Below are positions 11,530 to 33,198 of a stretch of 64,000 nucleotides of DNA, one piece after another. The stretch covers positions 7,378,001 to 7,442,000 of the forward strand of contig JAPYXD010000484.1 in assembly GCA_030998225.1 (NCBI GenBank), written 5' to 3'. Source of the stretch: Diplolepis rosae (lineage: Eukaryota; Arthropoda; Insecta; Hymenoptera; Diplolepididae). A program made the position numbers and the translations under genes. The notes beneath the pieces are model-generated. The model did no database searches. It was not told the origin of the DNA and worked only from the letters and a program-made list of their open reading frames with translations. The stretch's first letter is position 1. Each line of letters opens with the position of its first letter.

Positions 11530-12152
11530 TTATTTAAATTAACACTGATACAAACAAGGTTAAAATTTTACAAAGATTCAAACAATGGCACAGGGAAGAG
11601 TAAAGAGTAGAGAGAATTTTCGGTACCTTTGTTGAGTTGTGAATAGTCCCTTTTTTATGAATGATCCTCATAGGTGTGAGGGAGAGAGAATGATTCTTCC
11701 ACTGGTGTGACGAAGACAGCAATAGGTATCCCACTGGTATGCGGAAGGCAAAAACAAATATTCCACTGGTGTGAGGAGGACAAGAATAGTTATCTCACTC
11801 TACACTGACTCTAAGATCCTTTCAAAGATTGAAAGTGCAATCGGAGAATTTACGACACGTTTCTTCGGAAAACTGAACTAAACACGTATCCCACGCTGTG
11901 AATCCTTTTAAGATTTTAGAAATTTGTCGCACTTAATTTTGCTCACAAGACTAGTTTTCCCTTGGCGGCGTGTCCTTTTTATATTATATTTTTTGGTGAC
12001 GTCACGCGTTGCGCAGTCTCCCGCTGCGTGTGACGTAGTAATACCTCTCTTTTCAATAGGTGGTTTTCTCTCTCTTTTAGTAATTTCCCCAGGTTTCTCT
12101 CTATACCTAGCCCATGCCTATAATACATTCTAATGCGTCGCGGGACGTGACA
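11530..12152 (-). repeat. 3' LTR of the large Gypsy element
   Basis: About 96% identical by eye to 32564-33198. In element orientation it starts TGTCACGTCCCGCGACGC at 12152. The far end reads ...TTTAAATAA here against ...TTTAAATCA in the 5' LTR, so the terminal CA has mutated. It contains a TATA-like box near 11975-11990, TGACGTCA at 11997-12004, and a set of 32-bp tandem units. Confidence 0.88.
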
Positions 12153-12163
12153 CCTCCCCCCCT
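12153..12163 (-). other. Polypurine tract
   Basis: On the minus strand AGGGGGGGAGG abuts the TGTCAC start of the 3' LTR, exactly where plus-strand DNA synthesis of an LTR element is primed. It fixes the element's orientation. Confidence 0.9.
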
Positions 12164-12580
12164 AGTTCGAGCGCGGGGATGAAGCATCCGCGATCGAATC
12201 TTCGGAAGAAGAATACATTCGTTAATGTTTTTGAAGAGATACATTCAAATTCAAAATGTGAATGATGAATATAACATTCATTTCGGCGTCTGTTTTACAA
12301 TTTGTATTCTACTATTTGATACATTTCAATATCGACCATTTTTTTTATGTCATTAAAATTTATATTGTCTTGATATCATAATTTTTTTGTTATAATTAAT
12401 TACATAGTTTTTTTTTTAAATATTAAGGATTTAACATAAGGTTACATATGATTTTTGTTATATAACTGAATACATCAATGATTTTTTATTTTATATTCGT
12501 AAATTATAAATAACATGCTGTAATACAAAACGTAATTTTATAATGTCGTAGATTAGAAGACAAATTTTTTTTTTTTTTTT

Positions 12581-13045
12581 TTAAGAATTACTTTTATATT
12601 TTTCATTACGTAAGGGGTTGCGGTAGTTATGAGCTAAATGCCCTCTTTGAAAACACCTTTCACAAGAGTTGGTCCATTTTTGTAAGGTTTCTTTACTGAT
12701 TTCATCACTTATTTTGAAAATTTTCGTTTCTGGGATTAAGCTTTTTTCTTTCATTTCTTCTAAAAATACATATCTTGTGGAAAGCATTTCCAAGAGTTTA
12801 GATGCTGCATTTTGCTTTGCAGACTTTTTTTGAGGGGCTGGTTCCCCAATACAAGAGAAAGTTATTTTATTTTTAAAGATTTCGCAAGTTGCTTGGAACG
12901 GTGGCAGTTCTTGGTGTTTTCCAAGCGATTTTACAATATATGAAGGTTCGGAGAAATCATACTCAATGCTTATCTCGTTTAAAACTTGTACAGCAGTGCC
13001 TTTCGATAGGTCTCTTGTCTGCAAGGCCATTGTTTTGATCTGCAA
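12581..13045 (-). CDS. dsRNA-binding-domain protein with degenerate zinc knuckle (accessory ORF)
   Basis: 154 residues, intact. A canonical dsRBD occupies about residues 17-88: helix 1 AVQVLNEISIEY, first strand PSYIVKSL, strands through FQATCEIFKNKITFSC, then the RNA-contacting QKKSAKQNAASKLLEML helix with its KKxAK signature. The tail holds CERCFQRGHLAHNY, a CCHC-type knuckle whose last Cys is Tyr. The same dsRBD plus knuckle plan is seen in the ORF at 16512-17096, so these are probably paralogues. Inferred role: binding viral or element dsRNA, possibly to shield it from Dicer. It is the last ORF before the 3' LTR; 12164-12580 holds nothing but AT-rich sequence. Confidence 0.82.
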   Translation of the reverse strand: MQIKTMALQTRDLSKGTAVQVLNEISIEYDFSEPSYIVKSLGKHQELPPFQATCEIFKNKITFSCIGEPAPQKKSAKQNAASKLLEMLSTRYVFLEEMKEKSLIPETKIFKISDEISKETLQKWTNSCERCFQRGHLAHNYRNPLRNEKYKSNS

Positions 13046-13484
13046 AAGAATTACCTGTTTGAGTTGATGATTGAATTTATTGAAATTCTAAAGTTAGTTT
13101 TTTTGTTAATAATTTTGTGTTTCTTGATGTATTCACTTTCCGCGTTTTCTAACTCAAAGAGATATTTCATGTAGAGAAAACAGTGGTCTGTTTTTAAGAA
13201 CATTTTAATTTATTAAAGTTTGTCGTTACATTATAGCGGTTAAGGAAGAAGTAGTGGTGTATATGCAATATGCTTTTAAACAACGAATAAAAAATAAAAA
13301 AAGGGAAAATTTTTTTTATAAAAGATACTAATAGATATTGTTTATATTTAGAAAAAAGAATAATAAAAAATATGTTTTGATTTATTATTTTTATTCGTCG
13401 TTGTTATAAATAATAGTGGATGCTTCGGAATCGACGTCGTTATACAATGATTCTTGTTGGTATAAATGAATTACACGTTCGGCA

Positions 13485-13811
13485 TCAAAAAATTTGTGTA
13501 TTGCAAAGGGAGCAGTCGAGGCTAGATAGTTTTAAGGTACAATATAAGTCTTTAGTAACTATGTGATCTATTCGGACAGGTAAAGTTACTTTGGTTTCAA
13601 AGAAGCTAAGTTGTGTCATCCAACAATCCTCGCAAACAAGTTTTTTTTCGAGAACATTCATGTACAAATTCTCGACCAGGGTCGTACAGCAGTATTCTGA
13701 CCATAATTGATTTTCAAAATACGGCTGAACATCCTGCTCGCTTGCTCGAACTTCTTCTGCTTCGATTGTTTCGATTTCTTGGGGCAGCATTTTTCTGTTG
13801 GGGAAATTCAC
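13485..13811 (-). pseudogene. Cys-rich accessory ORF B, possible zinc-binding protein
   Basis: 108 residues ending at TGA, after which the same frame supplies CRTC and stops at 13440. CxxC pairs: LVCEDCW, DCSLCNTQ and, past the TGA, CRTC. This resembles the spacing in the neighbouring ORF at 13930-14337, so the TGA probably truncates a zinc-ribbon-like fold. No family recognised. The start was taken at the first ATG after a short gap from its neighbour. Confidence 0.45.
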
Positions 13812-13929
13812 AATATTTAAGGAATTTGAAATATTTGCAAAATTTACAATTTTTTTGTATTGAGGATTTCATGAAATTTAACAAAATTTTTCATGCGTGA
13901 TTACATGCGTGGAAGGTAGATACGTATAA

Positions 13930-14337
13930 TCATGCAGGGATATTTTCTACTAGAACTTCGTTTCCTTGACTAATTTTGAATTTATTATTTAAATATTGTT
14001 CGATACATTCTCTACAATCAGCTGTTCTTTTTCGCGGAGTAATTAATAGTTCTTGACAACCGTAACAATTCATATATATGCATTCCAATTTACAAATGGA
14101 ATGCCATGAAGTAAAAAATTCACAGTTATTTTGAGTTTCCTGATCTAATTTCTCGAAGCAGAATTGACAATATCTTTTTGTGGTTTGGTGATTATAATAT
14201 AAAAACAATGTTGAGGGTTCTAATCCGAAGCAATAACTCTGTAATAAGTGCGCGTATGCAATCGGATATTCTTGCGGACGTACGCCGTCTACTGGTCCAA
14301 GATGGTTAACAATAGGTTCACTTGGAGTCGGTATCAT
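13930..14337 (-). CDS. Cys-rich accessory ORF A, possible zinc-binding protein
   Basis: 135 residues, intact. Cysteine pairs YCQFCFEK, CKLEC, NCYGCQELL and DCRECIEQYL suggest a treble-clef or zinc-ribbon fold binding two zinc ions. The N-terminal third is Pro-rich and lacks Cys. I do not recognise the family. With ORF B it looks like a tandem duplication in the element's 3' accessory block. Bases 14338-14718 upstream hold only a doubtful 64-codon frame (14481-14675). Confidence 0.55.
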   Translation of the reverse strand: MIPTPSEPIVNHLGPVDGVRPQEYPIAYAHLLQSYCFGLEPSTLFLYYNHQTTKRYCQFCFEKLDQETQNNCEFFTSWHSICKLECIYMNCYGCQELLITPRKRTADCRECIEQYLNNKFKISQGNEVLVENIPA

Positions 14338-14718
14338 TTTCTACAAATTGTTAGAATAGATTTATTTTATTAAGGTCTGATAAGGAGGTTGAATAATAAC
14401 TTTGTATACATTTTCTAATCATGCAAGGTAAAGATTTTGCAAAAAGTATTTTACTTTCCGTCAGAAAAACAACTTTTATATTACAGTTTGTTATTTGTTT
14501 TGTTAGAAGCATTAAAGGCGTGGGTACAAAAACTGTCCTTCTGACGGTATAGGACGTTCATGCACGTGGTTTCGAGGAAGGTAAGGACGGAATGTACCTG
14601 TATCTGAAAAATTTTGTGAATTGACTTCAAGTCTATTAAAGAAAAGGGTGAAAGATGGAATAAAGGAAAGGTCAAAAGTTAAACGTCAAGTCGGTCAGTA
14701 AAGGTTTTGTCACGGAGC

Positions 14719-16452
14719 TTAAAGGAGTTTTTGTATAAGTTCTGTACGTGTTGGCGTTTTGTTTATTTTTTTAGATATTTTTTGAATTTTCAATAGTAAT
14801 AATCCTAAAATTGTAATCATAAGTAAAGTGATAATGATTAGTGCTAATGTTAATTTATGTGCACTGGAAATAAAAATAGATGGAATAATTTTTTGAATGT
14901 TAGCATATTTTGTAAGGATAAAGACATGGTTTTCGAAGATTGATAATGGCATGTCTTCTTTTTGCTAAAGAAGAAGTAATACCTTTTTTAGTAAGTGAGG
15001 CTCTTGAATAGAAATATTATATAAAAATGGTGAAATTATAGCAAGAGAAGTGGTTGATTTGCTAACTGGAATTGAATTATCCATTATATTTAAATACTTT
15101 TGGAGATGGTAATATGGAGTTGATGAATCGAGATTGCAACTTGACTTTGTTTGCAAAATTCCTATTCCTTGGAGTGTGATTAAGGTTTTAGAGTTTTTTC
15201 GACATGATAAGAAAATTTGTCGGGGGAAAATTGTTGAGTATAGCCATCCATGATGAAATTGCAATGGTGTTAGAAAGGGATATTCACTAAAACTGATGAA
15301 TATTTCACACTTGTATGGTTGAGAATTTAGAAACATTGATGTTTCACAAATAGGATTGTTATTGATATTGGATATAGATCTTGGTGGGTGACAAAATGTT
15401 TGGAATCCATTTTGATAACATGCATTGAGGAAATTTTCATTTGTTGTAAAGTATGATTGGTTATTTGAAGAAATAGCGAGATAAGAATGTTGAGGTTTTA
15501 TGTAAATAGAGGAAATTACGTCAGTATTAAAATCGAGATGTATTGGAATTGGATGTGGTTTAAATAATTGAAATTCTTCAGCAGATGGGATTGGTATAGT
15601 CATAATAAAAATCAAGTACTTATCGAATAAGAAGTATTGTATTTTAGAAAATGGAAGGACCATAGAAAAAAGGGATGTTGAAAGGTGTGGATCTTCTTTG
15701 TTGGATTTGAAGTCTAAGAAGGTATCAGGAAGTAACATAGGGTGCCATAAATTAGTTGCGGCATGGGTAATAGCTTCTGTAAGTTGGTCAAGGAGTAAAA
15801 GAAAAGAGTGAGAAATTTCATGCAGGTCGTTAAGCTAATTTGCTGCTAATATTCGATATAGGTGAATATTTGGATCTTTTTGAGAATTATGCCATTTTAT
15901 GTAGGTCATAATGTTGTCAAGTTTTGAAGAAAGATTTGTAACTTTTTGGAAAAATGGATTTGGGAGTAGATATAAATTTTCTTTGGGCCAGTAAAGTGAG
16001 GTTTCCTGTCTGATTCTCAATTCTAAAAGTACTTTTTGTATCTGTTGCAGGAATGGATCATTAGTTTTAGAAATATTCGTGATATTACGAGCTTGTCTAG
16101 ATATAAATGATATTTCTTCAAGGAAATAGTTGATTCGTTGTTCTATAAAATCAAGTTGTGTCTGATGATCGTATAAATTACAATTATTGGCAATATTTGA
16201 AAGTATGCAATATTCATATAATTTATGTGAGAAATCTATTATTTTGTATTTAAGTACTTCTGGCTGAAAGATATCGATATAAGATATAAAATGATATTTT
16301 TCAGAAAAAAGACGAACTTTTGAAATTGGTTCAAAATAAATCCCTGAAGAATGAGAAAATTGTGAGTCTATGAAGTATTTTTCTGCTTCGAAGAAAAGGA
16401 GTGGAATTAAAATTAAATACACTCTGGATGCTAGTTGATTAAGGAAATTCAT
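14719..16452 (-). pseudogene. env: Errantivirus/F-type envelope glycoprotein (two in-frame stops)
   Basis: One frame of 578 codons including the terminal stop, interrupted only by TAG at 15835-15837 and TAG at 14965-14967. Seen: N-terminal signal peptide (MNFLNQLASRVYLILIPLLF), SGIYFEPISKVRLFSEKY near the mature start as in Gypsy-type envelopes, a Cys-bearing middle with CETSMFLNSQPYKCEIF, WLYSTIF and IFLSC, and a C-terminal membrane anchor LTLALIIITLLMITILGLLL followed by a short tail. Length and order match insect errantivirus envelopes, which are relatives of baculovirus F fusion proteins. I do not see a clear furin site. It is the second envelope of this element. Known role of the family: membrane fusion and entry. 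Confidence 0.8.
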
Positions 16453-16511
16453 TAGGCTTCTCGGAAGGCTGAAAAAGAAAAGTAGGATTAATATTGGATA
16501 AAATAGGATGT

Positions 16512-17096
16512 TTACATATGGTTGGATTTAGGTCTAGAAGTTTTTTGGAGAAAAGGGGAAAAAAGTCTACTAAATGTTGAGGAGTTTCTTGGTGGAACTA
16601 GAGGGGGAAATTGGGTTGATTTGTCTACTTTAAAAATATTTCGTCTACGGCACTCTTTTGTAGCATGCATTTGAGTGTTACAAAATCTACAGGAATTTTC
16701 CCAAGGTATTAATTTTGGTCTTGGATTGGTTTGAATACTTTGATTTTTGGTTTTTTGCCTTTTTTTATCATCATTATTATAAAATTTTTCGTCACAGAGA
16801 TCGTATGATCTTATTAGTAGTAATAATAATTTTAAAGCTGCTCTATTTTCTGCTAATTTACTAGTAGGGCCGGCTTGTATAACGAAATGTTCATTTATAT
16901 TAATTTGTGCGAGAAAACATGAGTTTGTTTTCGAATTCGGATCAGGATAGACTGTATATTGCGGTAACGGCAGTCCATATTTTATCGCGAAGTTTCTTAA
17001 AATTTCTACATGATTTAAAAATCCCATGGAGTCTGTTCTGTATTTCTTTTTTGGGTAACTTGGTACGTGTGTAGGCTCGTCGTAGTAATGCTCCAT
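16512..17096 (-). CDS. dsRBD plus CCHC zinc-knuckle protein (accessory ORF)
   Basis: 194 residues, intact. dsRBD at about residues 27-95: helix HVEILRNFAIKYGL, strand PQYTVYPD, CFLAQININEHFVIQAG, then TSKLAENRAALKLLLLL; the usual KKxAK is replaced by SKLAEN, so RNA affinity may be weaker. CRFCNTQMHATKEC is a perfect C-x2-C-x4-H-x4-C knuckle, followed by basic RRR. The first 20 residues are basic (PKKKYR). The start lies 37 bases after the preceding dsRBD ORF and the stop 59 bases before the F-type envelope. Confidence 0.8.
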   Translation of the reverse strand: MEHYYDEPTHVPSYPKKKYRTDSMGFLNHVEILRNFAIKYGLPLPQYTVYPDPNSKTNSCFLAQININEHFVIQAGPTSKLAENRAALKLLLLLIRSYDLCDEKFYNNDDKKRQKTKNQSIQTNPRPKLIPWENSCRFCNTQMHATKECRRRNIFKVDKSTQFPPLVPPRNSSTFSRLFSPFLQKTSRPKSNHM

Positions 17097-17133
17097 TGCA
17101 GTTGATTTCCTGAATCGGTATGGAATGTTTATA

Positions 17134-17871
17134 TTAGAATTTATTGTACTGGTTGGGAGGTCTATATCCGCATTTAAAAAATTTTTTAAAGCTTTTCGTA
17201 GAGAAAGATGATGCAGTATGATTATTATTTGTTTTCATTTTATATAAATTTGTATTTTTATCACGATTGTTATTTGAAGTAATAGGTTTTGTTATTTGGC
17301 TACTCGTTGAAGGTTTTGGATCGTTTATAGATGATTCTTGAATTGTTACATGCAAATGTTCTAGTGAGTTTATCAAACGTAGTTCACATTTCTCGTCCTT
17401 ATGCGAAAGAGAATTAATAATTTTTATGGCAGCAAAATCCTTAGCTGTTTTTATTGAGTTTGCTATTCCTATTTGTTTAATGTTATTAATGAAACAAATT
17501 GCTATGTATGTTGAGTCTTTTTATGAGGTTTTTATTCGTAATACTGTATATTTTGGATACTCAAATTTATTTTCAGTGCAAATTTCGTTTAATTTTTTGC
17601 AATTTTTACTAATAGAGTTTGGTTGGACGTTTTGATTTGTTTCCTTTGATTCATTAATTAAGGCATTATATAAATTTTGTGCTACCTTTTGCTTTACATT
17701 TTCTTTATCTTTGCCACTATTCATTATTATATAATTTTTATATTGTAAATTAACGTGAAATAGACATTCATTATTATTGGTTTGTTCAATGAGTATCTCA
17801 TAAATGAGGGGCGGATCTCCTCTTTGTTGAATAATTTTGTTTAGTAAGATTGTAAAAGGAACATGCGACAT
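17134..17871 (-). pseudogene. Double dsRBD accessory protein (one in-frame stop)
   Basis: One frame of 246 codons including the terminal stop, with a single TAA at 17521-17523. The first dsRBD spans about residues 4-74 (ILLNKIIQQRGDPPLIYEIL through VKQKVAQNLYNAL). The second starts at KKLNEICTENKF, PKYTVL, and its C-terminal helix lies beyond the TAA (KTAKDFAAIKIINSL). A basic, Ser/Thr/Asn-rich tail follows. Two dsRBDs in series resemble the layout of host RNAi partners such as Loquacious or R2D2 (family knowledge); whether it derives from them needs a tree. It starts 10 bases after the glycoprotein stop. Confidence 0.72.
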
Positions 17872-17881
17872 TCTGAAGATG

Positions 17882-19912
17882 TTAGATTTGGATAGAGTAG
17901 TGGGTTCTACTAAGTTCTTCTTTTAGTTCAGAGTGAGGATAAATAGTTGTGTTTCTATTATTGTGATCTTTACCTGAAGTAGTATTTGCGTAATACGATG
18001 GACTTTTAGGTGCCTCTTTCGAGCTTTGTGGCGCTGAAGCTGTTAGCAGTTCTTGATGACTCTCAGCAGGAGGTCCAGAAGGTCGATGGGTACCTAAGTG
18101 TAATAAGAGGTTAGTGACCGAATCCCAGAAGGCGCCTAGTAGATGGAGAGACCATCCAAATAATCTGTGTAGCGCATATCCATGAATAATGGTATCAGCT
18201 ATCAATTTAATCCCTCTAATTATTATTATTAATCCAATTAGGCCTGCACTAGTGGTTCCAAAACTTGTAAAAATTGTCCAAAATCTACCCCATGCGGATT
18301 CAGCAATTTTATCAATTACATCTTCATTAAATAAATTCGTTAATGATATTCCTTGATTAATAGTTGGATGTCCTGTTATTTCTCTAGCTAAAGAATTTAG
18401 AATCATTGGTTTTTCTGCTGGAAACATAATATGATCTCGCAGTTTATCAAGATCAGATTGAGAATAAATGCCACTTGTTGCTAAGGATGAAGGATTTGTG
18501 TATTTCCAGGTTGCTTTTGTGAGAGGTTTAACTATAGTTGGTGCTATGGATTCGACAGGATTTGGAAGTAATTTGTACCAGGTTTCTCCAAAAAGGTACA
18601 TTGGTGGAAGGAAAGAATTGCAATTTGTTTGGATAGCTGATTTTATTAATATATGAGTTCGTGGAGAAAGGAAAAAGGATTGATTTCCTCTAAATATTGG
18701 TAGTTGTAGATAACATTCTTCAGTTTTGCGATATTTTACTTCAACCGGTATACATTTTACGATATGTACTACTTCTCCTGCAATTACTGACATATATCCT
18801 GGGCCTTTCATTAAATGATATGCAAATTCGTCTGGTGATTGGGTTGCTAAGGTTAATGTATTTCTAAAAACTTGCTGTTCAAGTATGCATCGTTGAGTAA
18901 GAACATCGTGATAAAGTCTATTTACTTCAGTGCGTATATGTCGTTCCACATATATAAATTTAGAGTTAACGTATGTAAAAATGTCCATATTTTGAACTTC
19001 TAAATGTTTATTTTCTAAAAATGAATTTCCAGGTCTGGTTTCAAAAATTAATAATTTTGGATGTTCGGTTTGTATTAAAACGTAACTGCAAACTGGTTTT
19101 CTTGTTTTTTCAGCTAGTACGAAAGTTATATCTTCAGTCGTTAAAGAATAAAAGGTTTCAGAATTGTCTGTCGTGTTGTCATATGTTTTATTTGCTGGTC
19201 CTTCATAAATAATTTCATATTTGTTAAAATTACATACGTCATTAGTTAATGTATCCCAGAATGTTTGTCCATATTCTACGTCTGTACAGAATGTGTCTGA
19301 AAGTGTGCATATTATTCCAGATCCTAATTGAATTTTATTTGAATTTAAATGAATAGTCGCGTAATGTTCTTGTAAAGTTATTTTGAATATTGCTTGGACT
19401 ACGACGTTATTCCATGTTCCATATGGGTCAGAAAATTGTGTACCAGTACAGTCTCCATTAGGTGTTACAGAACCTGCTAAAGTAACGCTATGAAATGAAG
19501 TTTCAGTTACTTTTAACTTTGATATTTGAAGAGAAGGGGTTACTAAACATGTTCCTATTGTGTGCATTTGATTGCATTGATCTCGTGTAACATCATGTAT
19601 ATATTCACTGTGGCCATTTGCTACTATGGAACTGTGAGAATGCATACCACAATGAGAGATGGCGCGTCGAATTTCTATTTTGCATTGTATTACTTTTGTA
19701 TTTGAAAATCCAGTTAATTATAAAAGTTGTATATAAGTTCTTTCAACATGTACTTGAGATCGAGGTAGATCACATTCTCCTACCTCTAGTAAAGATAATG
19801 TCGTAATATTTGATTGATTTGAACCGCAATCGAATCCTATGATGGCGTAGACTGTTGTTATATAGTTGAAGTTGCAAGTGAGCAGTGCCAAAAGGAAGCC
19901 TCGTAATCCCAT
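17882..19912 (-). pseudogene. Chuvirus-like (negative-strand RNA virus) glycoprotein, one in-frame stop
   Basis: A frame of 677 codons broken once by TAA at 19718-19720. Seen: signal peptide at the N-terminus (GFLLALLTCNFNYITTVYA), a Cys/His-rich CGMHSHSS segment shortly after the break, many cysteines and N-glycosylation sites in the ectodomain, and near the C-terminus SAGLIGLIIIIRGIKLIAD and ALHRLFGWSLHLLGAFW as membrane segments, then a Pro/Ser-rich cytoplasmic tail. I recognise this pattern as the jingchuvirus-type glycoprotein known in arthropod genomes, usually carried by BEL/Pao elements; here pol is Ty3/Gypsy. Probable role: an alternative entry glycoprotein. The family call rests on recall, not on a search. 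Confidence 0.7.
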
Positions 19913-20031
19913 CTCTGGAAAAAGGGGGTTCCAATTAGCAGCTTGCTTTGTAATATAAGAATAGAAAAATGTTTTATCGTTACATATGTATATTTTTGGA
20001 GTTATTGATTTACTTTTTGTATTTTGCGTTC

Positions 20032-20235
20032 CTAGTTCATTATATCCAACAAGTCGGCTATGACAATGTCATTTAATAGCCGTAAACTGAGAATTAAATT
20101 TTTGTATGCGTCCGGTCCTCTTGTTTTGATTGTTGAAAAAATGTCTTTTATTATTTCTGGATTGTTTAGGTTTCTGCTCCATGTGGGGATATTACAGTCG
20201 TCTTGCTTAAAAATTTTGCGATGAATTTGTTCCAT
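20032..20235 (-). CDS. Small CARD/death-fold-like protein
   Basis: 67 residues. IKDIFSTIKTRGPDAYKNLI and the following LILSLRLLNDIVIADLL match the central helices of CARD domains of initiator caspases (pattern: I..RGP.A...L...L...A..L). The N-terminal helix is short (EQIHRKIFK) and the usual helix 2 seems missing, so the domain may be truncated or spliced to an upstream exon; TTATTCCAG just before the ATG could be a splice acceptor. If expressed alone it could act as a CARD-only decoy at the insect apoptosome. It lies between integrase and the glycoprotein. Confidence 0.5.
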   Translation of the reverse strand: MEQIHRKIFKQDDCNIPTWSRNLNNPEIIKDIFSTIKTRGPDAYKNLILSLRLLNDIVIADLLDIMN

Positions 20236-20395
20236 TATATCTGGAATAATGTGTTATGTCTGAAATTTCATTTTTATTTTGTTTTATATATTTTTTATTT
20301 TATATATAAAACATATATTTTCATGAAAAAATTTTTTTATTTTTTATATTTTTACTATTTATCGGCAAAATAAAATTTCTATATCTTATTTAAAT

Positions 20396-20440
20396 TGTAT
20401 ATGTATATATATATATATATAAATATATATATATATTTTT
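20396..20440. repeat. (AT)n simple repeat
   Basis: A run of alternating TA with two short interruptions, in the AT-rich spacer between integrase and the CARD-like ORF. Confidence 0.9.
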
Positions 20441-24739: not shown

Positions 24740-25225
24740 TTAACTCTTTTCTGTATTTTTTATATTAACATAAAATGTTGTAACTGTTCGAGCTGGAATA
24801 GTAAATGTATTGGTAGATTTAAAAGGGTAACAGTGGTTCTCAATTTCTAAGCATTTTGAAGTATAGTTTATATTCACACTATTATCTTGAAAAAATTCTG
24901 ATCCTAATACTCCATCTTCTTCTACTGGGACTTCATTGGGAATAATGTTAAATATCGTTGGATAACCAAAAATGTTTATTTTTACCTGTCCTAACGTGTA
25001 AAGTGGTAAATCATTAATTCCTGTAAGTTTCAATACGTTTGGGCTATTTATGGGTACTTCAGGGTTGAGAACCTTTTGTTTAATTAAATTTCGAGCAGCA
25101 CCAGTATCAATCATCATGTGTGTTGGATTTTTTAGACCTTCCGTTGATATTATAATTGATGGAATTGAAGTGGACTTTGAAATATTTATTGTTGTTGTTG
25201 TATGATCGTTAGAAGTGGATGCCAG
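24740..25225 (-). CDS. pol: Gypsy retropepsin (protease) at start of pol
   Basis: MMIDTGAARNLI carries the aspartic-protease DTG triad, and DGVLGSEFFQDNSVNINY is the second conserved block. The frame is open upstream of 25117 to about 25230, where it overlaps the gag end in a different frame, implying ribosomal frameshifting between gag and pol as usual in errantiviruses. It ends at a TAA (24738-24740). Confidence 0.82.
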   Translation of the reverse strand: MASTSNDHTTTTINISKSTSIPSIIISTEGLKNPTHMMIDTGAARNLIKQKVLNPEVPINSPNVLKLTGINDLPLYTLGQVKINIFGYPTIFNIIPNEVPVEEDGVLGSEFFQDNSVNINYTSKCLEIENHCYPFKSTNTFTIPARTVTTFYVNIKNTEKS

Positions 25226-25236
25226 TCGTTCTCGAT

Positions 25237-25914
25237 TTATGCTTTCCTCAGTGCACCCGTGCTGGGGAGAGCTTTGGAGTTTTCCTGATGAGCTGTTTGT
25301 GATTGGTTATTTGGTCGTATCTTGCAGTCTCGTACTAAATGAACAGGTTGTTTACAGTAATTGCAAATTATTTCAGTATAATTTGAATTTTGTTGAGTGT
25401 TATTATTTTGTAAAAATGTATTTTCATATGGTTTATTTCGATTTTGAAACTGTCCTGAGTTAAAGTTTTTATACTGTCCTGGATTCAATTGTCTATTAGT
25501 ATTATTAACATTATTGTTATTATTGTAAACATTTCTAGGAAAATTATTATTATTGTTGTATCTTTGTTGTAAAAAATTATTATTATTGTTTCTATAATTG
25601 TTATTTCTATTTTGTAAAAAATGATTGTTGTTATTATTAAAATTATAATTTTTATTTCTTAAAAAATTGTTATTTGGAAAATTATTGTAATTGTTTTTTG
25701 CGAAATTATTATTATTATTACTTCTTTGACCATTGAAATTACTATATCCTTGTTGGTTAGGATGCAAAAATTTTTTTTGTTTATTATTAAGAACTGCATC
25801 TTGAGCTTTACTTAAATGAAAACATTTTTCAGTTGTGTGACCTGGTTTTTTACAAATTAAAGAAATAGTTTTATTTTCAAGTGCTACGTTGAATCGGGTG
25901 GTTTTATTATTTTT
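25237..25914 (-). CDS. gag: Gag C-terminal part: zinc knuckles and Asn-rich spacer
   Basis: Contains CKKPGHTTEKC (a knuckle whose first Cys is replaced by Ser) and CNYCKQPVHLVRDC (complete CCHC), separated by about 110 residues dominated by Asn with Phe and Arg (NNNNFLQQRYNNNNN type), coded by AAT/AAC-rich DNA that looks like expanded microsatellite. Cut from the N-terminal part of gag by the Penelope insertion at 25915. Confidence 0.82.
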   Translation of the reverse strand, partial: KNNKTTRFNVALENKTISLICKKPGHTTEKCFHLSKAQDAVLNNKQKKFLHPNQQGYSNFNGQRSNNNNNFAKNNYNNFPNNNFLRNKNYNFNNNNNHFLQNRNNNYRNNNNNFLQQRYNNNNNFPRNVYNNNNNVNNTNRQLNPGQYKNFNSGQFQNRNKPYENTFLQNNNTQQNSNYTEIICNYCKQPVHLVRDCKIRPNNQSQTAHQENSKALPSTGALRKA

Positions 25915-26019
25915 CATATTCTGGACTTACATTGACCCTTAATTAATAATTGAAGATGTATGTTGATGTTGGTAATTGGCTTTAGGGTCCAAGGTTGATA
26001 AAAACTCAGAGTTTTACAT

Positions 26020-26061
26020 AATCAGACGTTTCGGCTCTAATCGGAGCCCTCATCAGTGATT
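26020..26061 (-). ncRNA. Hammerhead ribozyme in left Penelope arm
   Basis: Minus-strand counterpart of the copy at 28545-28586: stem I AATCA/TGATT, CTGATGA, stem II closed by GGGCTC/GAGCC, GAAA, helix III ACGT, C at the cleavage site. All core bases are conserved. Confidence 0.85.
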
Positions 26062-26766
26062 TATTTAAATCTAAAAAATACAGAAAGAAAAAGGTTTGCT
26101 AACATAGGATTTCTTGTAAGTGTCTAAGTATAAAAATATTTTTAAATTGACATTCGTGCATGAAGTTGTAGATTGAAATTTTTTGGTGTAATTTTTAATA
26201 CAATACATATGCACATATACCCATATACACACATGCATATATATACATATACATATATTATATATATACAATATTATATACATACTACATATATGCAATA
26301 TTATACACAACATTGACTTTTCTTTATTTGAAGCTATGTATTGAAATATATCAGTGATTATATCTATCTTTCATGGCTAGTTGAGGGCAAGATGTCACAG
26401 GATAAAATACCTTTTTTAAAAAATGAACATTCTTCAACGTTAAAACTGCCAAATCCTGCTTAAATATGTAGATATACAATTTTTTAACATTCTTTCTTAA
26501 AAATATACAAAACAGCCAAATCTCTTTTGGTATGAAGTGAAATCTGTAAAAAAATTTAATTTAGCATTTTTTCTTTGGCATATTTTCCTTGGAATTTTGT
26601 CTCCTGTGATACTTTTTTAGCAAAAAGAATTGAAAAAATTGACAGTTTTTTTGCGATGACTTAGAGTCCGTAGTGTTATACAAAAGGTTTTTCTCAATCG
26701 TGGGTATAGACAATGAGGCTGCTTATTTAGAATGTACACAGAAAGGACATAAATTTACATATAATA

Positions 26767-27144
26767 TTGCACATAGATTTTTCTTCCAAGGAACCGATCC
26801 CGTTGCTTGATGCCGCTGATGTCGTCTACAATATACCTTGCACAGATTGTAAAGCTACTTATATAGGCACGACCAAACGCCCCTTAAAAACCAGAATCCA
26901 TGAGCATAAGAAAGATGTCTACAACCCTCCAGAAAAATGGACTGCCTTAACAAAACATGCATGGCACCAAGATCACAAATTTAATTTTGATGAAGTCACA
27001 ATATTAGACAGGTCGGATAACTACAAAAAACGCATGATTCTAGAAATGGCCCACATAGCCAGTACCTCACATTCTGTAAATCAAAGGACTGATACAGAAA
27101 ATCTATCAGTTTTTTATCTCCCTCTTTTAAACAACCAAGTCTAA
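26767..27144 (+). pseudogene. Penelope GIY-YIG endonuclease, 5'-truncated ORF
   Basis: The first codons overlap the left inverted arm, so the RT part is gone and only the C-terminal endonuclease remains. VVYNIPCTDCKATYIGTTKR corresponds to the GIY...YIG core with the CxxC insert typical of Penelope enzymes. RPLKTRIHEHK supplies the Arg/His helix and ILEMAHI the metal-binding Glu. Ends with a natural TAA. Bases 27145-27818 are the 3' untranslated part. Confidence 0.82.
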
Positions 27145-28544
27145 CCCCATTCAAAATTCATATTAAAACATTCTGAAATACACAAATACACAAACTTTCT
27201 GAAAAGACCCAAAATGTGGCGACGGAACCGTTATGTCTCAGGTTACATTTTATGATCTCCTCATTGTCCTAACAGTCCAGCCATCTCCAGCACATCCTTT
27301 TCTTTCTCCAAATAAAATCCCTAAAAAGGGGAGAAAAATCTTACCCTCCACTCTCATCCCACTATGCATGCCTAAAAACCAAAACATAACTCAGTTTACG
27401 AGTCAACCTCCCAGGAGAGAAGTGTGTGCAGTTTAAGTTATGTGGCTTCCCAGAAAACGAAAAAAGAAAAAATGGGATAATAACATTTATACAAAAATCG
27501 TAATTTTAATCAAGGTCAGTCCTACTTTTTTACTTTATATATAGTCTGCGATAGGATTTTAAAAAATTTGGGTAAATTGTGCAAAAATTTAAAAAAATTT
27601 TAAAAAATACTATACCTACACATTTGAACATTCTATTTACAATTGCATCTCAATTCCTTACGCAATTTATAATTGTTTACAAAGTTTTTTACTTACATCT
27701 ACTTGTTGAGCAAAAATCGGCAATTTATTCCCAAAAACTGTATTTTATACAGTGGTATTCTCATTGCTTCACACCAAAGAAATATTTACATAGGTATTTT
27801 AGTTCTAGACTCAAAGCAAAGAAAAATCTATGTGCAATATTATATGTAAATTTATGTCCTTTCTGTGTACATTCTAAATAAGCAGCCTCATTGTCTATAC
27901 CCACGATTGAGAAAAACCTTTTGTATAACACTACGGACTCTAAGTCATCGCAAAAAAACTGTCAATTTTTTCAATTCTTTTTGCTAAAAAAGTATCACAG
28001 GAGACAAAATTCCAAGGAAAATATGCCAAAGAAAAAATGCTAAATTAAATTTTTTTTACAGATTTCACTTCATACCAAAAGAGATTTGGCTGTTTTGTAT
28101 ATTTTTAAGAAAGAATGTTAAAAAATTGTATATCTACATATTTAAGCAGGATTTGGCAGTTTTAACGTTGAAGAATGTTCATTTTTTAAAAAAGGTATTT
28201 TATCCTGTGACAGTCTTGCCCTCAACTAGCCATGAAAGATAGATATAATCACTGATATATTTCAATACTTAGCTTCAAATAAAGAAAAGTCAATGTTGTG
28301 TATAATATTGCATATATGTAGTATGTATATAATATTGTATATATATAATATATGTATATGTATATATATGCATGTTTGTATATGGGTATATGTGCATATG
28401 TATTGTATTAAAAATTACACCAAAAAATTTCAATCTACAACTTCATGCACGAATGTCAATTTAAAAATATTTTTATACTTAGACACTTACAAGAAATCCT
28501 ATGTTAGCAAACCTTTTTCTTTCTGTATTTTTTAGATTTAAATA

Positions 28545-28586
28545 AATCACTGATGAGGGCTCCGATTAGAGCCGAAACGTCTGATT
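28545..28586 (+). ncRNA. Hammerhead ribozyme in right Penelope arm
   Basis: Stem I AATCA (28545-28549) pairs with TGATT (28582-28586); core CTGATGA at 28550-28556; stem II GGCTC/GAGCC; GAAA at 28574-28577; helix III ACGT; cleavage predicted after C28581. Complete consensus core. Confidence 0.88.
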
Positions 28587-28666
28587 ATGTAAAACTGAGT
28601 TTTTATCAACCTTGGACCCTAAAGCCAATTACCAACATCAACATATATCTTCAATTTATTATTTTT

Positions 28667-29860
28667 ATTATTATTAGTTGATTCTTCGGTTTTTAAATAA
28701 TCAGTATTTTTATTTCTTCGCAGTGCAGAACTTGCAGCCAATCTTCGTTCTATGTCTATTGCATCATTAATTACTTCCTTAAATGTGTCCTTTTCTTCTA
28801 CACGAATTTCTAACTCAGGACGCAAACCGCGTATAAAACATTGAATTACATCTCTTTCTAAATTTTGTTTAAAAGCATTATCTACCTGACCGCCATTATT
28901 AAGTCTGTGAGCATCTTCTATTCTATCAGCAATTTCTTTAATTCTAGCAGCATAGGAAAGGACATTTTCTCTTTCCCACATAAATGTATTACCTAATTCT
29001 CCCTGCAATTGATATACGCTTTTCGCAGGGGTATATACTCTTTTCAATTTTTCTATTAATTCCTCTATTGTTGCATACGTTGACCCAAAAATACATTTTC
29101 GTGCCTCACCAGATAATTTACCTCTCAATAGACGTGCAAGATTTTCTTGGGCAGCAGGTGTCGGCAGTATTGCCTTTGCTTCCATGCAACCCTCAATAAA
29201 ATGGGACAATGGGAGGTTACTTCCGTCGAACAAAGGGACCACCTATAGCGCGTCGCGTAAGGATACCTGCTGGCTGTTAGGTATGGCTACGGCCATCTCT
29301 TCGTTGTTTACTATTACGGGATTATCCTGATTTATGACTTCTGTATCGCTTTTGTCGTCGTCGCTATCGTTGTTACTAATTAGAGAGTCGCGTGCCAATG
29401 AGGTTTTCAATTTTTCTTTCAAAGTTCTATTTTCTATTGTTATTACCGCTGAGCTTAGCAAATTAGATCCGTCAAAATAAGATAACTCGTTCGTTAAAGT
29501 TTGATCTTGATTACTAGATCCTATCACAATGCTCAAAACTGGACAGAAACTTGAATGAAATCCGCTAGTTTTACTAGAATTTTCACTTGATATGCTTTGA
29601 TCATTAATTAGAGTCTTGTCGAAACGTGAATCGTCTAGCTGAATAGTTTTATCTAATTCTTGTTCAGCAGAAAAAGTGTTTGAAATATCCTTGTATTTAT
29701 TATAATCGACTAAATTTTCTTTGATTTTACCTGATCTTTTTAGTTTCAAGGAATCTATTTGATTTTGATCCACAATTTTTGCGAGTTGATTGTCTTGTTT
29801 TGCTTTACTACGCGTAATAACCTTTTGGGCGGATTCTACAGGGGTATTTGAATTTGACAT
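28667..29860 (-). pseudogene. gag: Gag N-terminal and capsid part (one in-frame TAG)
   Basis: Starts MSNSNTPVESAQKVITRSKA, with an acidic, Ser-rich matrix-like region, then after TAG at 29243-29245 the capsid region: VPLFDGSNLPLSHFIEGCME, ARLLRGKLSGEARKCI, LQGELGNTFMWERENVLSYA, VIQCFIRGLRPELEIRVEEK. This matches the capsid module of insect errantivirus gags. Continues into the Asn-rich part beyond the Penelope insertion. Ends at TEESTNNNKNNK where the Penelope duplication begins. Confidence 0.85.
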
Positions 29861-30638
29861 TGAGTCATTATAAATTTACAGTTTCTTTTAGTTGAGCGTT
29901 ATCTTAGATTATTTATTGTTAATTATCGATTGTTTATAACAATTTAAAAAAACGACATGTAAAATTTTGTTTGTAAATAAAGTGAAAACACTAAAAATAT
30001 AATTTTAATTTATAAAAAATCAAAAAAAAAAATTATAATAATAATTTCAAATATTTAGAACAGGAATTATAGTTTTTTTCATTTATGGACCCTAAAGCCA
30101 ATTATCTAACATTACAAATAATTTCAAAATATAATTTAATTATTTTTATTTGTTTATAACAATAATTAATATTTTTATTCTTTTATTAGCAAATAAGATA
30201 ATAAAAAAAATATAATTCTATAAAATATTAAAATAAATAAATAATCGCTCAATTTTTGTAAAATTATAATGTTAAATAATATATATATATATTTTTTTTG
30301 TACCAACCACGTGTGTCTTGTAAATTATAATGATCTATTTTATTAATTTATTGAATTATAAATTGTTTTTTAAATAAATAAAATTGTTTATAACAAGGAT
30401 CAGATAAGATACGAGTTATGCACAATTTATTTTTCTCTAGACTGGACAAGTTAGGCTCAAGCTCAGATCCTTGGACAATCATTGCAAATAAAAATATTCT
30501 GTTCCTTAACAGAGTTAAAATTAAAGTTATAAACAATACAATCACAAGCACTTCGAACTTTGCCCTACCTAATGATCGTAATCAATGGTGACCGTTCAAC
30601 ATACCCAAAAGGGACTTATACTCTCGTGTGCTGTTTTT
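29861..30638. other. Leader region of the large Gypsy element
   Basis: AT-rich, no coding frame. ggaccctaaagccaatta at about 30088-30105 matches the terminus of the Penelope element. The word ttaggctcaagctcagatcc (about 30450) recurs, slightly changed, at about 32475 on the other side of the 30639-32078 insertion. Confidence 0.45.
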
Positions 30639-32078
30639 ACATTCTCATCATGGATGAGAAGGTATTGGTTTTATGTGAAAAATGACATTCGAAAATTTCA
30701 TCAAATCTTTACGTTTTGAGACCCCCTGAGTCCGAAAAAAGGGTTTTTACGAAAGTGTCTGTCTGTCTGCCTGTAGGTCGTGTGCGGCATAACTCTCGAT
30801 AGAATTATCAGATTGAATTGTGCTTTGGTACACTTTATCGGAGCCGAAAAATTAAGGACAAGTTCGTTAACCAGCCACATCCAATCAAAATTGAGGGATG
30901 GAGCACTACTTTTGTGTTTTTGAAAATAATTTTTTGAAAAAATCAAAAATTCCAATCCTGGTTTTTGATAGTGCTCATAAATCTCTACAAATTATCCTTA
31001 TAACATTTTTTGATTAAATCAAAATTAGAAATGTTACAGCATATTCAAATTCGAAAAAAGTCAATATCAAAATTCCATTTTCCAGTTAAATTATACGAGA
31101 TACGAAAAAACTTTATGATACAATATTATTGAATAAATAAAGACCTACAAATTTGAATTGTAACATTTTTTCATAAGATGCATATTTTTTTTTTTAATTC
31201 AAAAATAATCTATTGAAAATCCAAAATTCAATTTTTTAACAATAATATGTGAAATACGAAAAAAACGTAAGAATACAAAGTTGTTCGTTTCAAAAAGATC
31301 TACAAGTTTTGTCTTACACAGTTTATGAAAAAACATATTTTTCTTTTCAATTCCAAAAAATACGATTAAAATTCAATAATTCCATTTTTTAGACAAAATA
31401 TATGAGATACATAAAAAAAGTTTAGATGAAAAATTATTTGCCTAAATGAGGTCTACACATTCTTATTAAGAAATTTCGCGACAGGATGTATATTTTATGT
31501 TTTGATTTTTAATATTAAAAAAATTCGATTTTTTTCACCAAAATATGTGAGATACGAAATAAGCGTTGTTCTGCAAAATCGTTTCCTTAAAGTAGTACGA
31601 TAACGAAAATTAGACCTCAGACAAAAATAGATAATTTTGCTTTCAAGAATAGCAACATTATTATTGAAGGGCCAATTTGAATGAGAAAAGATTATTTTTC
31701 ATGAAGAAAATTTGAAACACAAAAAAATAATGTTATTAATAAATTTTATTTTTGCCCAAACTTATTTTCTTATCGCTTCGAGTCAAATTTTTGAAAATGA
31801 TGCGATTCTAATAAATTATGGTTCATTTTTTTAGAAAAAAGATTCTCTACAACTTGACCGTTTCCTGTTTTTGAATTTTTTCTTGAAAGCAAAATTATCT
31901 ATTTTAGCCTGAGGTCTAATTTTCGTGATCGCACTACCTTAAATAAAGTCTACGATTATTTTTTCTTTTTGAGAGATTTGGAAGAAAATAAATTATTTTA
32001 ATCATGTAATTTATTAAAAAGTTACTGAAATGTGTACAGAAAATCCAGCGCGAAGCGCGAGTGTCATGATGAGAATGT
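30639..32078. mobile_element. Unclassified insertion with 14-bp inverted ends
   Basis: acattctcatcatg at 30639-30652 is inverted as catgatgagaatgt at 32065-32078. The left part includes gtctgtctgtctgcctgtag and cataactctcgat, words common in dispersed insect repeats. The rest is AT-rich and contains an internal inverted pair (cagacaaaaatagataattt near 31620 and its inverse near 31910). No transposase found. Confidence 0.5.
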
Positions 32079-32390
32079 GTTCCTTAAGGCCGATAGAGCC
32101 TTAAGTAAATTGAATTTCCTGTTTCACTTAAACTGAAAAAGAAATTTAGTGAATTTGAGAAAATGAGTAATTCACATCATCTTTAATATTATAAAATTGG
32201 TTTGAGCTTCAGTATTAAATTATAAGAAATAAACTTAAATGTATGCGAAGAGCACAAGACCGAGCGCGAAGCGCGAGGTCCAAAAAGATCGGAGCGCGAA
32301 ACGCGACGATCAAATCGCACGCCCTAGGCGCGCTCAAGCTTGCGAGCGAAGCGCGCGATGAGAATGTGCCCGCGAAGCGGGCAGATTTTT
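32041..32390. repeat. Cluster of short GC-rich hairpins (gcgcgaagcgcg type)
   Basis: agcgcgaagcgcgag, gagcgcgaaacgcgac, gcgagcgaagcgcgcg and cccgcgaagcggg occur within 350 bp of otherwise AT-rich sequence, each a small palindrome around GAA. The word gatgagaatgtg accompanies two of them. Looks like the end region of a repeat family. Confidence 0.6.
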
Positions 32391-32563
32391 TTTGTTTGTT
32401 TTAACTTAAATCAAAACTTAGTTAATAAATTAGAATAATTTTTTAAATAAGATAAGTTACTTAATCACTTAGGTTAGCCTCAAGGTCAGATCCCTGCGTG
32501 ATTTTTCAAACTTATTTTATTTTATACAATTTATATAAATTATAAAATTTCAAAGAAATGATT

Positions 32564-33198
32564 TGATTTAAATTAACACTGATACAAACAAGGTTAAAAT
32601 TTTACAAAGATTCAAACAATGGCACAGGGAATAGGTAAAGAGTAAAGAGGAAAGAGAGAGAATTTTCGGTACCTTTAAGTGAGTTGTGAATGGTCCTTTT
32701 TTTATGAATGATCCTCACATGTGTGAGGGAGAGCGAATGATTCTTCCACTGGTGTGAGGAAGACAAGAATAGCTATCCCACTGGTATGAGGAAGACAGAA
32801 ACAAATATTCCACTGGTGTGAGGAGGACAAGAATAGTTATCTCACTCTACACTGACTCTAAGATCCTTTTAAAGATTGAAAGTGCAATCGGAGAATTACG
32901 ACACGTTTCTTCGGAAAACAGAACTAAACACGTATCTCACGCTGTGAATCCTTTTAAGATTTTAGAAATTTGCCGCACTTAATTTTGCTCACAAGACTAG
33001 TTTTCCCTTGGCGGCGTGTCCTTTTTATATTATATTTTTTGGTGACGTCACGCGTTGCGCAGTCTCCCGCTGCGTGTAACGTAGTAATACCTCTCTTTTC
33101 AATAGGTGGTTTTCTCTCTCTTTTAGTAATTTCCCCAGATTTCTCTCTATACCTAGCCCATGCCTATAATACATTCTAATGCGTCGCGGGACGTGACA
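32564..33198 (-). repeat. 5' LTR of the large Gypsy element
   Basis: Starts TGTCACGTCCC at 33198 and ends TTTAAATCA at 32564, giving TG...CA. Relative to the 3' LTR there are about 20-25 differences and a few indels. Contains three 32-bp units beginning ccactggtgtgagga at 32746, 32778 and 32810 (+ strand reading), plus a weaker fourth. Confidence 0.87.
33018..33050 (-). promoter_or_regulatory. LTR promoter: CRE/ATF palindrome followed by TATA box
   Basis: In element orientation the palindrome TGACGTCA (33043-33050) lies about 15 bases upstream of a TATAATATAAAAAGG stretch. Both are preserved in the 3' LTR. TGACGTCA is the site of CREB/ATF-type factors, so the element may respond to stress or cAMP signalling (inference). 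Confidence 0.5.

What the first reader, a model, noticed from the sequence alone, without database searches (positions are those of the whole stretch)
11530..33198. A single LTR retroelement with gag-pol, two unrelated envelope genes and at least six accessory ORFs
Seen: one LTR pair, one polypurine tract, and all ORFs on the same strand with 10-59 base gaps in the central block. Known: errantiviruses have gag, pol and one F-type env. Here a chuvirus-like glycoprotein, three dsRBD ORFs, a CARD-like ORF and two Cys-rich ORFs are added, about 8 kb beyond integrase. Inference: this is an endogenous virus-like lineage with an expanded anti-defence gene set, which I do not recall being described.
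Basis: partly seen in the sequence, partly recalled or inferred. Interest (0 to 1): 0.95.

Follow-up and report, generated by a model that had tools for sequence, protein, structure and literature searches.

The report
Giant insect retrovirus with two envelopes
An insect chromosome holds the decayed remains of an unusually long retrovirus-like element that carried two unrelated membrane-fusion genes and several small double-stranded-RNA-binding proteins, which suggests that some insect retroviruses collected entry and possibly anti-defence genes from elsewhere.

Summary
The finding is largely right. Between one LTR pair (608 of 630 compared bases identical) lies a minus-strand Gypsy-like element: gag, PR-RT-RNaseH, integrase, a chuvirus-type glycoprotein (Pfam E 7e-213), a dsRBD ORF, a dsRBD plus zinc-knuckle ORF, an F-type env (E 1e-20), two Cys-rich ORFs, a second dsRBD plus knuckle ORF, PPT, LTR. 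It spans 21.7 kb, 18.9 kb without a later insertion in gag. This copy is dead. Relatives of two ORFs (48 and 32 proteins) include a few that fuse neighbouring pieces in the window's order: glycoprotein to dsRBD, dsRBD to F-env, Cys-rich to LTR. So the part from glycoprotein to 3' LTR looks like a multicopy unit. Its link to gag-pol rests on this locus alone, because the whole-genome search did not complete. A CARD is not supported; selection and anti-defence function are not shown. A 2023 survey reported no clear Gypsy capture of such glycoproteins, and my searches found no described element with this gene set, but one relevant paper was not held. Verdict: new variant of a known kind.

The parts
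32560..33198 (-). 5' LTR (left edge approximate)
   Evidence: alignment to the other LTR, 608 of 630 compared bases identical
28665..29875 (-). gag, capsid part, in two ORFs of one frame
   Evidence: two minus-strand ORFs; no capsid family in Pfam for the pieces scanned, so by position and sequence resemblance (recalled)
25941..28664 (.). later Penelope-like insertion that splits gag; two inverted arms of about 845 bases around a GIY-YIG ORF
   Evidence: 848 alignment columns, 839 identical between arms; GIY-YIG E 8.8e-4, 20.0 bits against a cut-off of 22.6
25237..25926 (-). gag, nucleocapsid part with weak CCHC knuckle
   Evidence: zf-CCHC E 0.04, under the cut-off
23006..25306 (-). pol: protease, reverse transcriptase (YLDD), RNase H; interrupted in this copy
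   Evidence: RVT_1 E 1e-36, RT_RNaseH_2 E 3e-38, gag-asp_proteas weak E 0.015; YLDD
21926..23005 (-). acidic spacer with two GRPRK (AT-hook-like) motifs between RNase H and integrase
   Evidence: ORF; AT_hook only E 0.72
20483..21925 (-). integrase: H2C2, rve with D,D,E, GPY motif
   Evidence: Integrase_H2C2 E 3e-21, rve E 2e-11; D,D,E and GPY (my own regular expression for the zinc residues did not match, the Pfam profile did)
   Evidence: no Pfam CARD, no fold match better than E 9.9
17882..20068 (-). chuvirus-type (Monjiviricetes) fusion glycoprotein; one frame, interrupted once near its start in this copy
   Evidence: PF24664 E 7e-213; 494 homologs with E <= 1e-3; 62, 68 and 77% to P0001, P0002, P0049; frames
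17134..17922 (-). dsRBD ORF 1: one dsRBD and, after an in-frame interruption, part of a probable second
   Evidence: dsrm E 9e-5; Loquacious chain E 2.6e-4, no single stretch significant; second piece only dsrm E 0.27
16512..17096 (-). dsRBD ORF 2: dsRBD plus a C-x2-C-x4-H-x4-C knuckle read from the sequence, 194 aa, uninterrupted
   Evidence: dsrm E 3e-5 (the knuckle is not scored by Pfam); 48 homologs, best 96% full length
14719..16452 (-). F-type envelope (baculovirus F / errantivirus env), three pieces of one frame, transmembrane stretch near its end
   Evidence: Baculo_F E 1.3e-20 and, under the cut-off, 7e-5 for the two larger pieces; frame and hydrophobicity
13930..14337 (-). Cys-rich ORF 1, 135 aa, uninterrupted, no known family
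   Evidence: 32 homologs; no Pfam match
13485..13811 (-). Cys-rich ORF 2, 108 aa, uninterrupted, no known family; starts at GTG in the listing
   Evidence: no Pfam match
12581..13045 (-). dsRBD ORF 3: dsRBD plus degenerate knuckle, 154 aa, probable paralog of dsRBD ORF 2
   Evidence: dsrm E 8e-7, zf-CCHC_3 E 0.03 under the cut-off; profile match to ORF 2 E 6e-5, probability 65%, over 120 columns
12153..12162 (-). polypurine tract beside the 3' LTR
11530..12152 (-). 3' LTR

Best explanation
This is one inactivated copy of a multicopy, very large (about 19 kb) Ty3/Gypsy-type endogenous retrovirus of an insect, probably a hymenopteran. Shown: LTR pair, PPT, gag-pol with a GPY-type integrase, a chuvirus-type glycoprotein as the first gene of env size after integrase, an F-type env further downstream, three dsRBD ORFs, two of them probable paralogs with knuckle-like ends, and two Cys-rich ORFs. 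Parts of the order from glycoprotein to LTR are also seen in relatives. Inferred: gag-pol is made from the full-length RNA and the downstream ORFs from spliced RNAs. The chuvirus-type protein does the membrane fusion. The F-type protein, which lacks the usual fusion-peptide motif, is a retained auxiliary, as the F homolog is in Group I baculoviruses after they gained GP64. The dsRBD proteins bind viral dsRNA or Dicer partners and blunt the siRNA response. I give the single-element reading about 0.9, the envelope division of labour about 0.5, and RNAi antagonism about 0.4.
For: Domains. LTRs and PPT. Same-strand ORFs far above chance. Order in relatives: of 48 dsRBD-ORF-2 relatives, 1 also holds glycoprotein (P0165), 5 reach the dsRBD-ORF-1 region in its frame (P0136, P0150, P0162, P0166, P0168) and 7 run into the DNA of F-env (P0131, P0152, P0159, P0163, P0167 at least partly in its frame, P0148 and P0153 in another), all in the window's order and strand. 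Of 32 Cys-rich-1 relatives, 1 (P0190) is fused to the LTR, E 2e-28. The sense strand is A-rich in gag, pol and the dsRBD ORFs, less so in the glycoprotein. F-env: an RxxR is present but the 83 residues after it in that piece hold no glycine, and the published fusion-peptide consensus is absent in all three pieces (consensus from passages of PMC6085415). Group I baculoviruses keep a remnant F after gaining gp64 (passage of PMC4741009). dsRBD ORF 1 is closest to Loquacious among solved chains. dsRBD ORFs 2 and 3 are probable paralogs.
Against: No TSD and no canonical PBS. The link from gag-pol to the glycoprotein is seen only at this locus; of the 120 listed glycoprotein relatives (of 494) none runs into integrase. 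The skew of F-env and the Cys-rich ORFs is like the flanks, and that of the glycoprotein (+0.11) lies within their range. dsRBD matches in relatives are under Pfam's cut-off (P0121, P0122, P0136: 18.6-21.5 bits against 23) and P0162 has none. The Loquacious match has no stretch significant on its own (best 10.8 bits), and P0162, which holds much of that ORF, found nothing relevant in the PDB. The glycoprotein profile found no solved relative, so its class III fold rests on the literature. Selection is not shown: Cys columns are not significantly more conserved (p 0.076 for Cys-rich 1, 0.50 for dsRBD ORF 2; the single Trp column of the latter 0.45). Shared changes are more conservative than single ones in Cys-rich 1 (12 of 19 against 69 of 180, p 0.033) but not in dsRBD ORF 2 (16 of 32 against 105 of 228, p 0.41). 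In dsRBD ORF 2 the basic patch that I recall as needed for dsRNA binding (KKxAK) is not visible. Missing fusion peptides are also common in silkworm ERV env genes.
Confidence: 0.7

Rival explanations
1. The dsRBD plus zinc-knuckle proteins are not anti-defence factors but help the element handle its own very long RNA: packaging, splicing or export, as extra nucleocapsid-like or Rev-like proteins.
For: Two probable paralogs join a dsRBD to a Gag-like knuckle (knuckle pattern read from the sequence). The genome is more than twice as long as usual for an errantivirus (usual size recalled) and has many downstream ORFs.
Against: dsRBD ORF 1 has no knuckle that I can see and is weakly closest to a Dicer partner. 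Ordinary errantiviruses splice env without such proteins (recalled).
Confidence: 0.35
2. The block from glycoprotein to dsRBD ORF 3 is a recent passenger of one Gypsy subfamily, or two element types recombined, so that most gag-pol copies lack it.
For: No TSD and no PBS. Only this locus joins pol to the block. Spare-part composition with two envelopes. Sense-strand skew differs along the block.
Against: Parts of the block are multicopy with order and, in one copy, LTR kept. The glycoprotein follows integrase within about 0.6 kb, where env belongs.
Confidence: 0.2
3. F-env is the working fusogen and the chuvirus-type glycoprotein a redundant or tropism-widening addition.
For: F-env has a hydrophobic start and a transmembrane stretch, and F-type env is the known fusogen of errantiviruses (PMC12992720 passages).
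Against: No fusion-peptide consensus and no glycine in the 83 residues after RxxR. The glycoprotein's main piece matches its profile from position 88 to 649 of 653.
Confidence: 0.15
4. Chance neighbourhood or assembly artefact: unrelated remnants placed side by side.
For: The region has later insertions and a large inverted repeat.
Against: Same neighbours, order and strand in relatives from other contigs; ORFs far above chance.
Confidence: 0.03

Closest known systems
Errantivirus / insect endogenous retroviruses (Metaviridae, gypsy/gypsy)
   Same: LTRs, gag, PR-RT-RH-IN with GPY integrase, F-type env downstream
   Different: A second, chuvirus-type envelope before F-env; three dsRBD and two Cys-rich ORFs; about 19 kb; no fusion-peptide consensus in F-env; no PBS or TSD seen; RT clade not tested
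Anakin (mosquito BEL/Pao element with chuvirus glycoprotein, Dezordi 2020, PMC7642597 passages)
   Same: Chuvirus-type glycoprotein together with pol in an LTR element
   Different: Pol here is Gypsy-like; an F-type env and accessory ORFs are present; the passages read name none for Anakin
Endogenous Jingchuvirales glycoproteins of Hymenoptera (Dezordi 2023, PMC10084718 parts 1-3 of 5; Flynn and Moreau 2019, PMC6540820 passages)
   Same: Same glycoprotein family; Gypsy fragments reported nearby in Hymenoptera
   Different: The 2023 paper reports no clear evidence of capture by Gypsy; here it lies inside one LTR pair shortly after integrase, and relatives link it to the same downstream ORFs
Group I alphabaculoviruses (GP64 plus remnant F; PMC4741009 passage)
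   Same: Works-like analogy: a newly acquired fusogen beside an F protein that may no longer fuse
   Different: DNA virus, unrelated in other respects; an analogy, not membership

Membership tests
Errantivirus / insect ERV | LTR pair with PPT | tested here: met
Errantivirus / insect ERV | PR-RT-RNaseH-IN order with GPY/F integrase | tested here: met
   (protease match weak)
Errantivirus / insect ERV | F-type env downstream of pol | tested here: met
   Baculo_F E 1.3e-20; it is not the first env
Errantivirus / insect ERV | furin site followed by F fusion peptide | tested here: not met
   an RxxR but no fusion-peptide consensus; this copy is decayed and full relatives were not available
Errantivirus / insect ERV | tRNA primer site and short TSD | tested here: not met
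   may be lost by decay
Errantivirus / insect ERV | RT inside the gypsy/gypsy clade | not tested
   no reference set was at hand
Anakin (BEL/Pao + chuvirus glycoprotein) | chuvirus-type glycoprotein with pol between LTRs | tested here: met
Anakin (BEL/Pao + chuvirus glycoprotein) | BEL/Pao-type pol | tested here: not met
   no BEL/Pao-specific family among the Pfam matches of the pieces scanned; H2C2, rve and GPY integrase found; which families mark BEL/Pao is recalled
Integrated chuvirus (non-retroviral EVE) | nucleoprotein or polymerase beside the glycoprotein, no LTR or pol | tested here: not met
   no such Pfam match among the 20 pieces scanned; LTRs and pol present
CARD / death-fold protein (ORF 20032-20253) | match to CARD by profile or fold | tested here: not met
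   the model is weak, so the fold part is inconclusive

The most novel reading that the evidence does not exclude
A lineage of insect endogenous retroviruses that replaced its ancestral F-type fusogen by a class III chuvirus glycoprotein, kept F as an auxiliary, as Group I baculoviruses did, and carries its own RNAi-antagonist cassette: a Loquacious-like dsRBD protein, a duplicated dsRBD plus zinc-knuckle protein and two Cys-rich proteins of unknown fold. It would be, to my knowledge, the first LTR element with dedicated genes against the siRNA machinery.
Probability: 0.3. Interest if true: 0.9.

Novelty: new variant of a known kind. Interest (0 to 1): 0.72.

Why it matters
Insect retroviruses are usually described with gag, pol and one env. 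An element with two unrelated fusogens and several dsRBD genes would show that they can grow towards the complexity of exogenous viruses. It would make the arms race between retroelements and insect small-RNA defence directly testable from the element's side. It would also supply the Gypsy capture of a chuvirus glycoprotein that a 2023 survey looked for and did not clearly find.

Tried and rejected
Rejected: the CARD. A common origin of the two Cys-rich ORFs looked likely by eye but the profile comparison gave only 16 columns, E 0.34. The model of Cys-rich 1 is useless (pLDDT 40) and was not searched further; its profile and Cys-rich 2 found nothing relevant in the PDB. Profile of dsRBD ORF 2 against the PDB: nothing up to E 1. 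dsRBD ORF 3 against the PDB: a plant Dicer-like 1 dsRBD at E 0.0015, not used. Rfam on 11400-33400: nothing at gathering scores, so a hammerhead motif that I suspected in the Penelope-like insertion is not supported. An inherited-versus-single change test gave a weak result for one of two ORFs. Agreement of contig length 4739 between a dsRBD-ORF-2 and a Cys-rich-1 relative can be chance and was not used.

Led nowhere: five scans of viral contigs and one of genome contigs found no relative. The whole-genome search of the window's own assembly was asked 26 times with the same request and never answered, so TSDs in other copies, empty sites and dN/dS could not be tested.

Literature: ten searches. 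The statement that I found no described LTR element with this gene set rests on the listings and the parts of papers named in the report. Chary and Hayashi 2025 (doi 10.7554/eLife.108449), which deals with envelope-carrying Gypsy elements, is not held; I saw only its citation and mentions in another paper. It may describe such elements.


Full report
What is there. The region 11530-33198 holds one pair of LTRs in the same orientation. Over 646 alignment columns there are 608 matches, 22 mismatches and 16 gap columns, which points to an insertion that is neither fresh nor ancient. Read on the minus strand, a purine tract lies directly before the 3' LTR, whose start is TGTCACG. I could see no target-site duplication, and no TGG-type primer site in the roughly 90 bases after the 5' LTR that I looked at.

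Gag-pol. The capsid and nucleocapsid parts of gag are separated by a 2.7-kb insertion. Its two inverted arms agree in 839 of 848 columns around a plus-strand ORF with a GIY-YIG match (E 8.8e-4, slightly under the cut-off), most simply a Penelope-like element (family name recalled). Pol follows as protease (weak match), reverse transcriptase (E 1e-36, YLDD), RNase H (E 3e-38), an acidic spacer with two GRPRK motifs, and an integrase with zinc domain, D-D-E spacing and a GPY motif. Gag and pol are interrupted several times in this copy. Pol is Gypsy-like; the exact clade was not tested.

The block beyond integrase. About 8.3 kb between integrase and the LTR holds 8 ATG ORFs of 100 aa or more on the minus strand (two of them pieces of F-env), 0 on the other strand, and 0.09 on average in 300 first-order Markov shuffles, maximum 2. 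First comes a chuvirus-type fusion glycoprotein (PF24664, E 7e-213) in one frame, interrupted once near its start. Then follow dsRBD ORF 1, dsRBD ORF 2 with a CCHC pattern that I read from the sequence and that Pfam does not score, and an F-type env that reads in three pieces of one frame (Baculo_F E 7e-5, under the cut-off, and 1.3e-20) with a transmembrane stretch near its end. Cys-rich ORFs 1 and 2 and dsRBD ORF 3 complete the block. ORFs 2 and 3 of the dsRBD type match each other over dsRBD and knuckle (E 6e-5, probability 65%, 120 columns). The same profile against dsRBD ORF 1 gave E 0.32 over 14 columns. A fourth dsRBD is possible: the end of the first piece of ORF 1 matches the start of a dsRBD family (DND1_DSRM E 5.5e-4, under its cut-off), and the next piece of the same frame matches the rest weakly (dsrm E 0.27). 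In relatives the dsRBD matches are weaker: of ten relatives scanned, not all of which hold a dsRBD ORF, three match dsrm, all under the cut-off.

Is it one element? The protein search with dsRBD ORF 2 gave 48 relatives of 83 candidates, the best 96% identical over its full length. Mapped back on the window, 1 of 48 also holds glycoprotein sequence, 5 of 48 reach the region of dsRBD ORF 1 in its frame, and 7 of 48 run into the DNA of F-env, 5 at least partly in its frame and 2 in another, always on the same strand and in the window's order. They look like decayed copies with small deletions. The search with Cys-rich ORF 1 gave 32 relatives of 33 candidates, six of them 135 aa long. One of the 32, P0190, passes from Cys-rich ORF 1 directly into the LTR, E 2e-28. 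Hence the part from glycoprotein to 3' LTR most likely moves as a unit and has many copies in some public data set; the join from F-env to Cys-rich ORF 1, and the places of Cys-rich ORF 2 and dsRBD ORF 3, were not shown in a relative. All 80 of these relatives are listed from ENA contigs without a named organism, so they may come from one species or a few. None of the 120 listed glycoprotein relatives (of 494) runs into integrase, so the join with gag-pol rests on this locus and on the glycoprotein's place within about 0.6 kb of integrase. The sense strand has A-T skew +0.13 to +0.29 in gag and pol, +0.11 in the glycoprotein, +0.22 in dsRBD ORFs 1-2, only +0.03 to +0.05 in F-env and the Cys-rich ORFs, and +0.14 in dsRBD ORF 3. 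The 33 flank pieces average +0.02 with standard deviation 0.06 and maximum 0.16; leader and insertion are near zero. This fits one unit in part and proves nothing.

The glycoprotein. Of 5390 candidates 494 proteins match with E <= 1e-3. In a tree of 63 rows (the window, the 60 best hits and two further named ones) the window groups with P0049, P0002 and P0001 at 100/100; the virus has a long branch and no firm place. The host is therefore probably hymenopteran; this is inference. The profile found no solved relative in the PDB.

How it may work. A Gypsy-type genome of some 19 kb would make gag-pol from full-length RNA and the rest from spliced RNAs, as errantiviruses do for env (recalled). The chuvirus-type protein belongs to a family described as type III fusion glycoproteins (passage of PMC13172572) and would do the fusion. 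The F-type protein keeps an RxxR, but the 83 residues after it in that piece hold no glycine, and the published fusion-peptide consensus is missing from all three pieces (consensus from PMC6085415 passages). In Group I baculoviruses GP64 took over and a remnant F stayed, unable to replace GP64 (PMC4741009 passage); I think the same happened here. Against this, six of seven silkworm ERV env genes also lack the motif, so decay alone is possible. The dsRBD proteins most likely act on dsRNA or on Dicer partners: ORF 1 is closest to Drosophila Loquacious among solved chains, E 2.6e-4, with pieces aligning to what I recall as its first and second dsRBD and the start of its third, though no stretch is significant on its own (best 10.8 bits) and the relative P0162 found nothing relevant. 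ORF 3 keeps the basic stretch that I recall as typical for RNA binding, while ORF 2 does not. The rival is a role in handling the element's own RNA, which the Gag-like knuckles would suit.

Selection. With proteins only, I could not compute dN/dS. Cysteine columns are not significantly more conserved (p 0.076 for Cys-rich 1, 0.50 for dsRBD ORF 2). Changes shared by three or more copies are more conservative than single ones in Cys-rich 1 (12 of 19 against 69 of 180, p 0.033) but not in dsRBD ORF 2 (16 of 32 against 105 of 228, p 0.41). None of the shared changes hits a cysteine column (0 of 19 and 0 of 32, against 17 of 180 and 10 of 228 single ones). For these tests 22 of 33 Cys-rich and 20 of 49 dsRBD rows were aligned, the window included, mostly the best-scoring ones. 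This is weak support for one ORF and none for the other.

Known relatives. Errantiviruses share gag-pol and F-type env. Anakin of mosquitoes joins a chuvirus glycoprotein to a BEL/Pao element (PMC7642597 passages). For Hymenoptera, Dezordi and others found Gypsy fragments beside such glycoproteins but 'no clear evidence' of capture by Gypsy (PMC10084718 part 3). In ants, apart from two small clades with viruses, the rest of 224 such glycoprotein EVEs fall in ant-only clades (PMC6540820 passage). Kojima 2025 (PMC12440569, parts 1-3 of 5 read) names Errantivirus and Anakin as examples of envelope capture. I found no description of a Gypsy element with two envelopes and dsRBD genes, but the most relevant survey (doi 10.7554/eLife.108449) was not held.

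Verdict. The interpretation as one element is supported for several joins from glycoprotein to LTR and probable for the whole. The anti-defence role is a reasonable hypothesis, not shown.

Noticed in passing
window 25941-28664: Penelope-like insertion in gag with near-identical inverted arms and a GIY-YIG ORF; a piece of about 110 bases at about 81-83% identity recurs at about 53449-53557.
   Followed up: partly
window 61130-62215: Remnant of another Gypsy integrase, 44% identical in its longest matched stretch to the one described; weaker integrase-like matches near 35730-36390.
   Followed up: no
window 21926-23005: Acidic, repeat-like spacer with two GRPRK motifs between RNase H and integrase, in the integrase frame; could help integration-site choice (speculation).
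   Followed up: no
window 29876-32555: AT-rich 2.7-kb leader without long ORFs and without the A-rich sense strand, holding inverted repeats at 31582-31947 (90% complementary) and a 58-base stretch 84% like 9839-9894; probably further small insertions.
   Followed up: no
window 38884-39465, 54254-54808, 56832-57077: Plus-strand exons that look like an insect beta-N-acetylglucosaminidase gene (recalled, not searched).
   Followed up: no
window 44713-45601, 50094-50726, 51628-52608: Mariner-like transposase remnants (recalled, not searched).
   Followed up: no
window 48734-49387 and 62639-64000: Two nearly alike stretches of a non-LTR reverse transcriptase element on opposite strands (type recalled).
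   Followed up: no
alignment A1, tails of P0013, P0017, P0018, P0026, P0056 and others: Several glycoprotein relatives, the virus OKIAV146 included, carry a YPxL-like motif near the C-terminus, a possible budding or sorting signal.
   Followed up: no
window 34004-34107: Two tandem copies of a 52-base unit, 96% alike, about 0.8 kb outside the 5' LTR.
   Followed up: no
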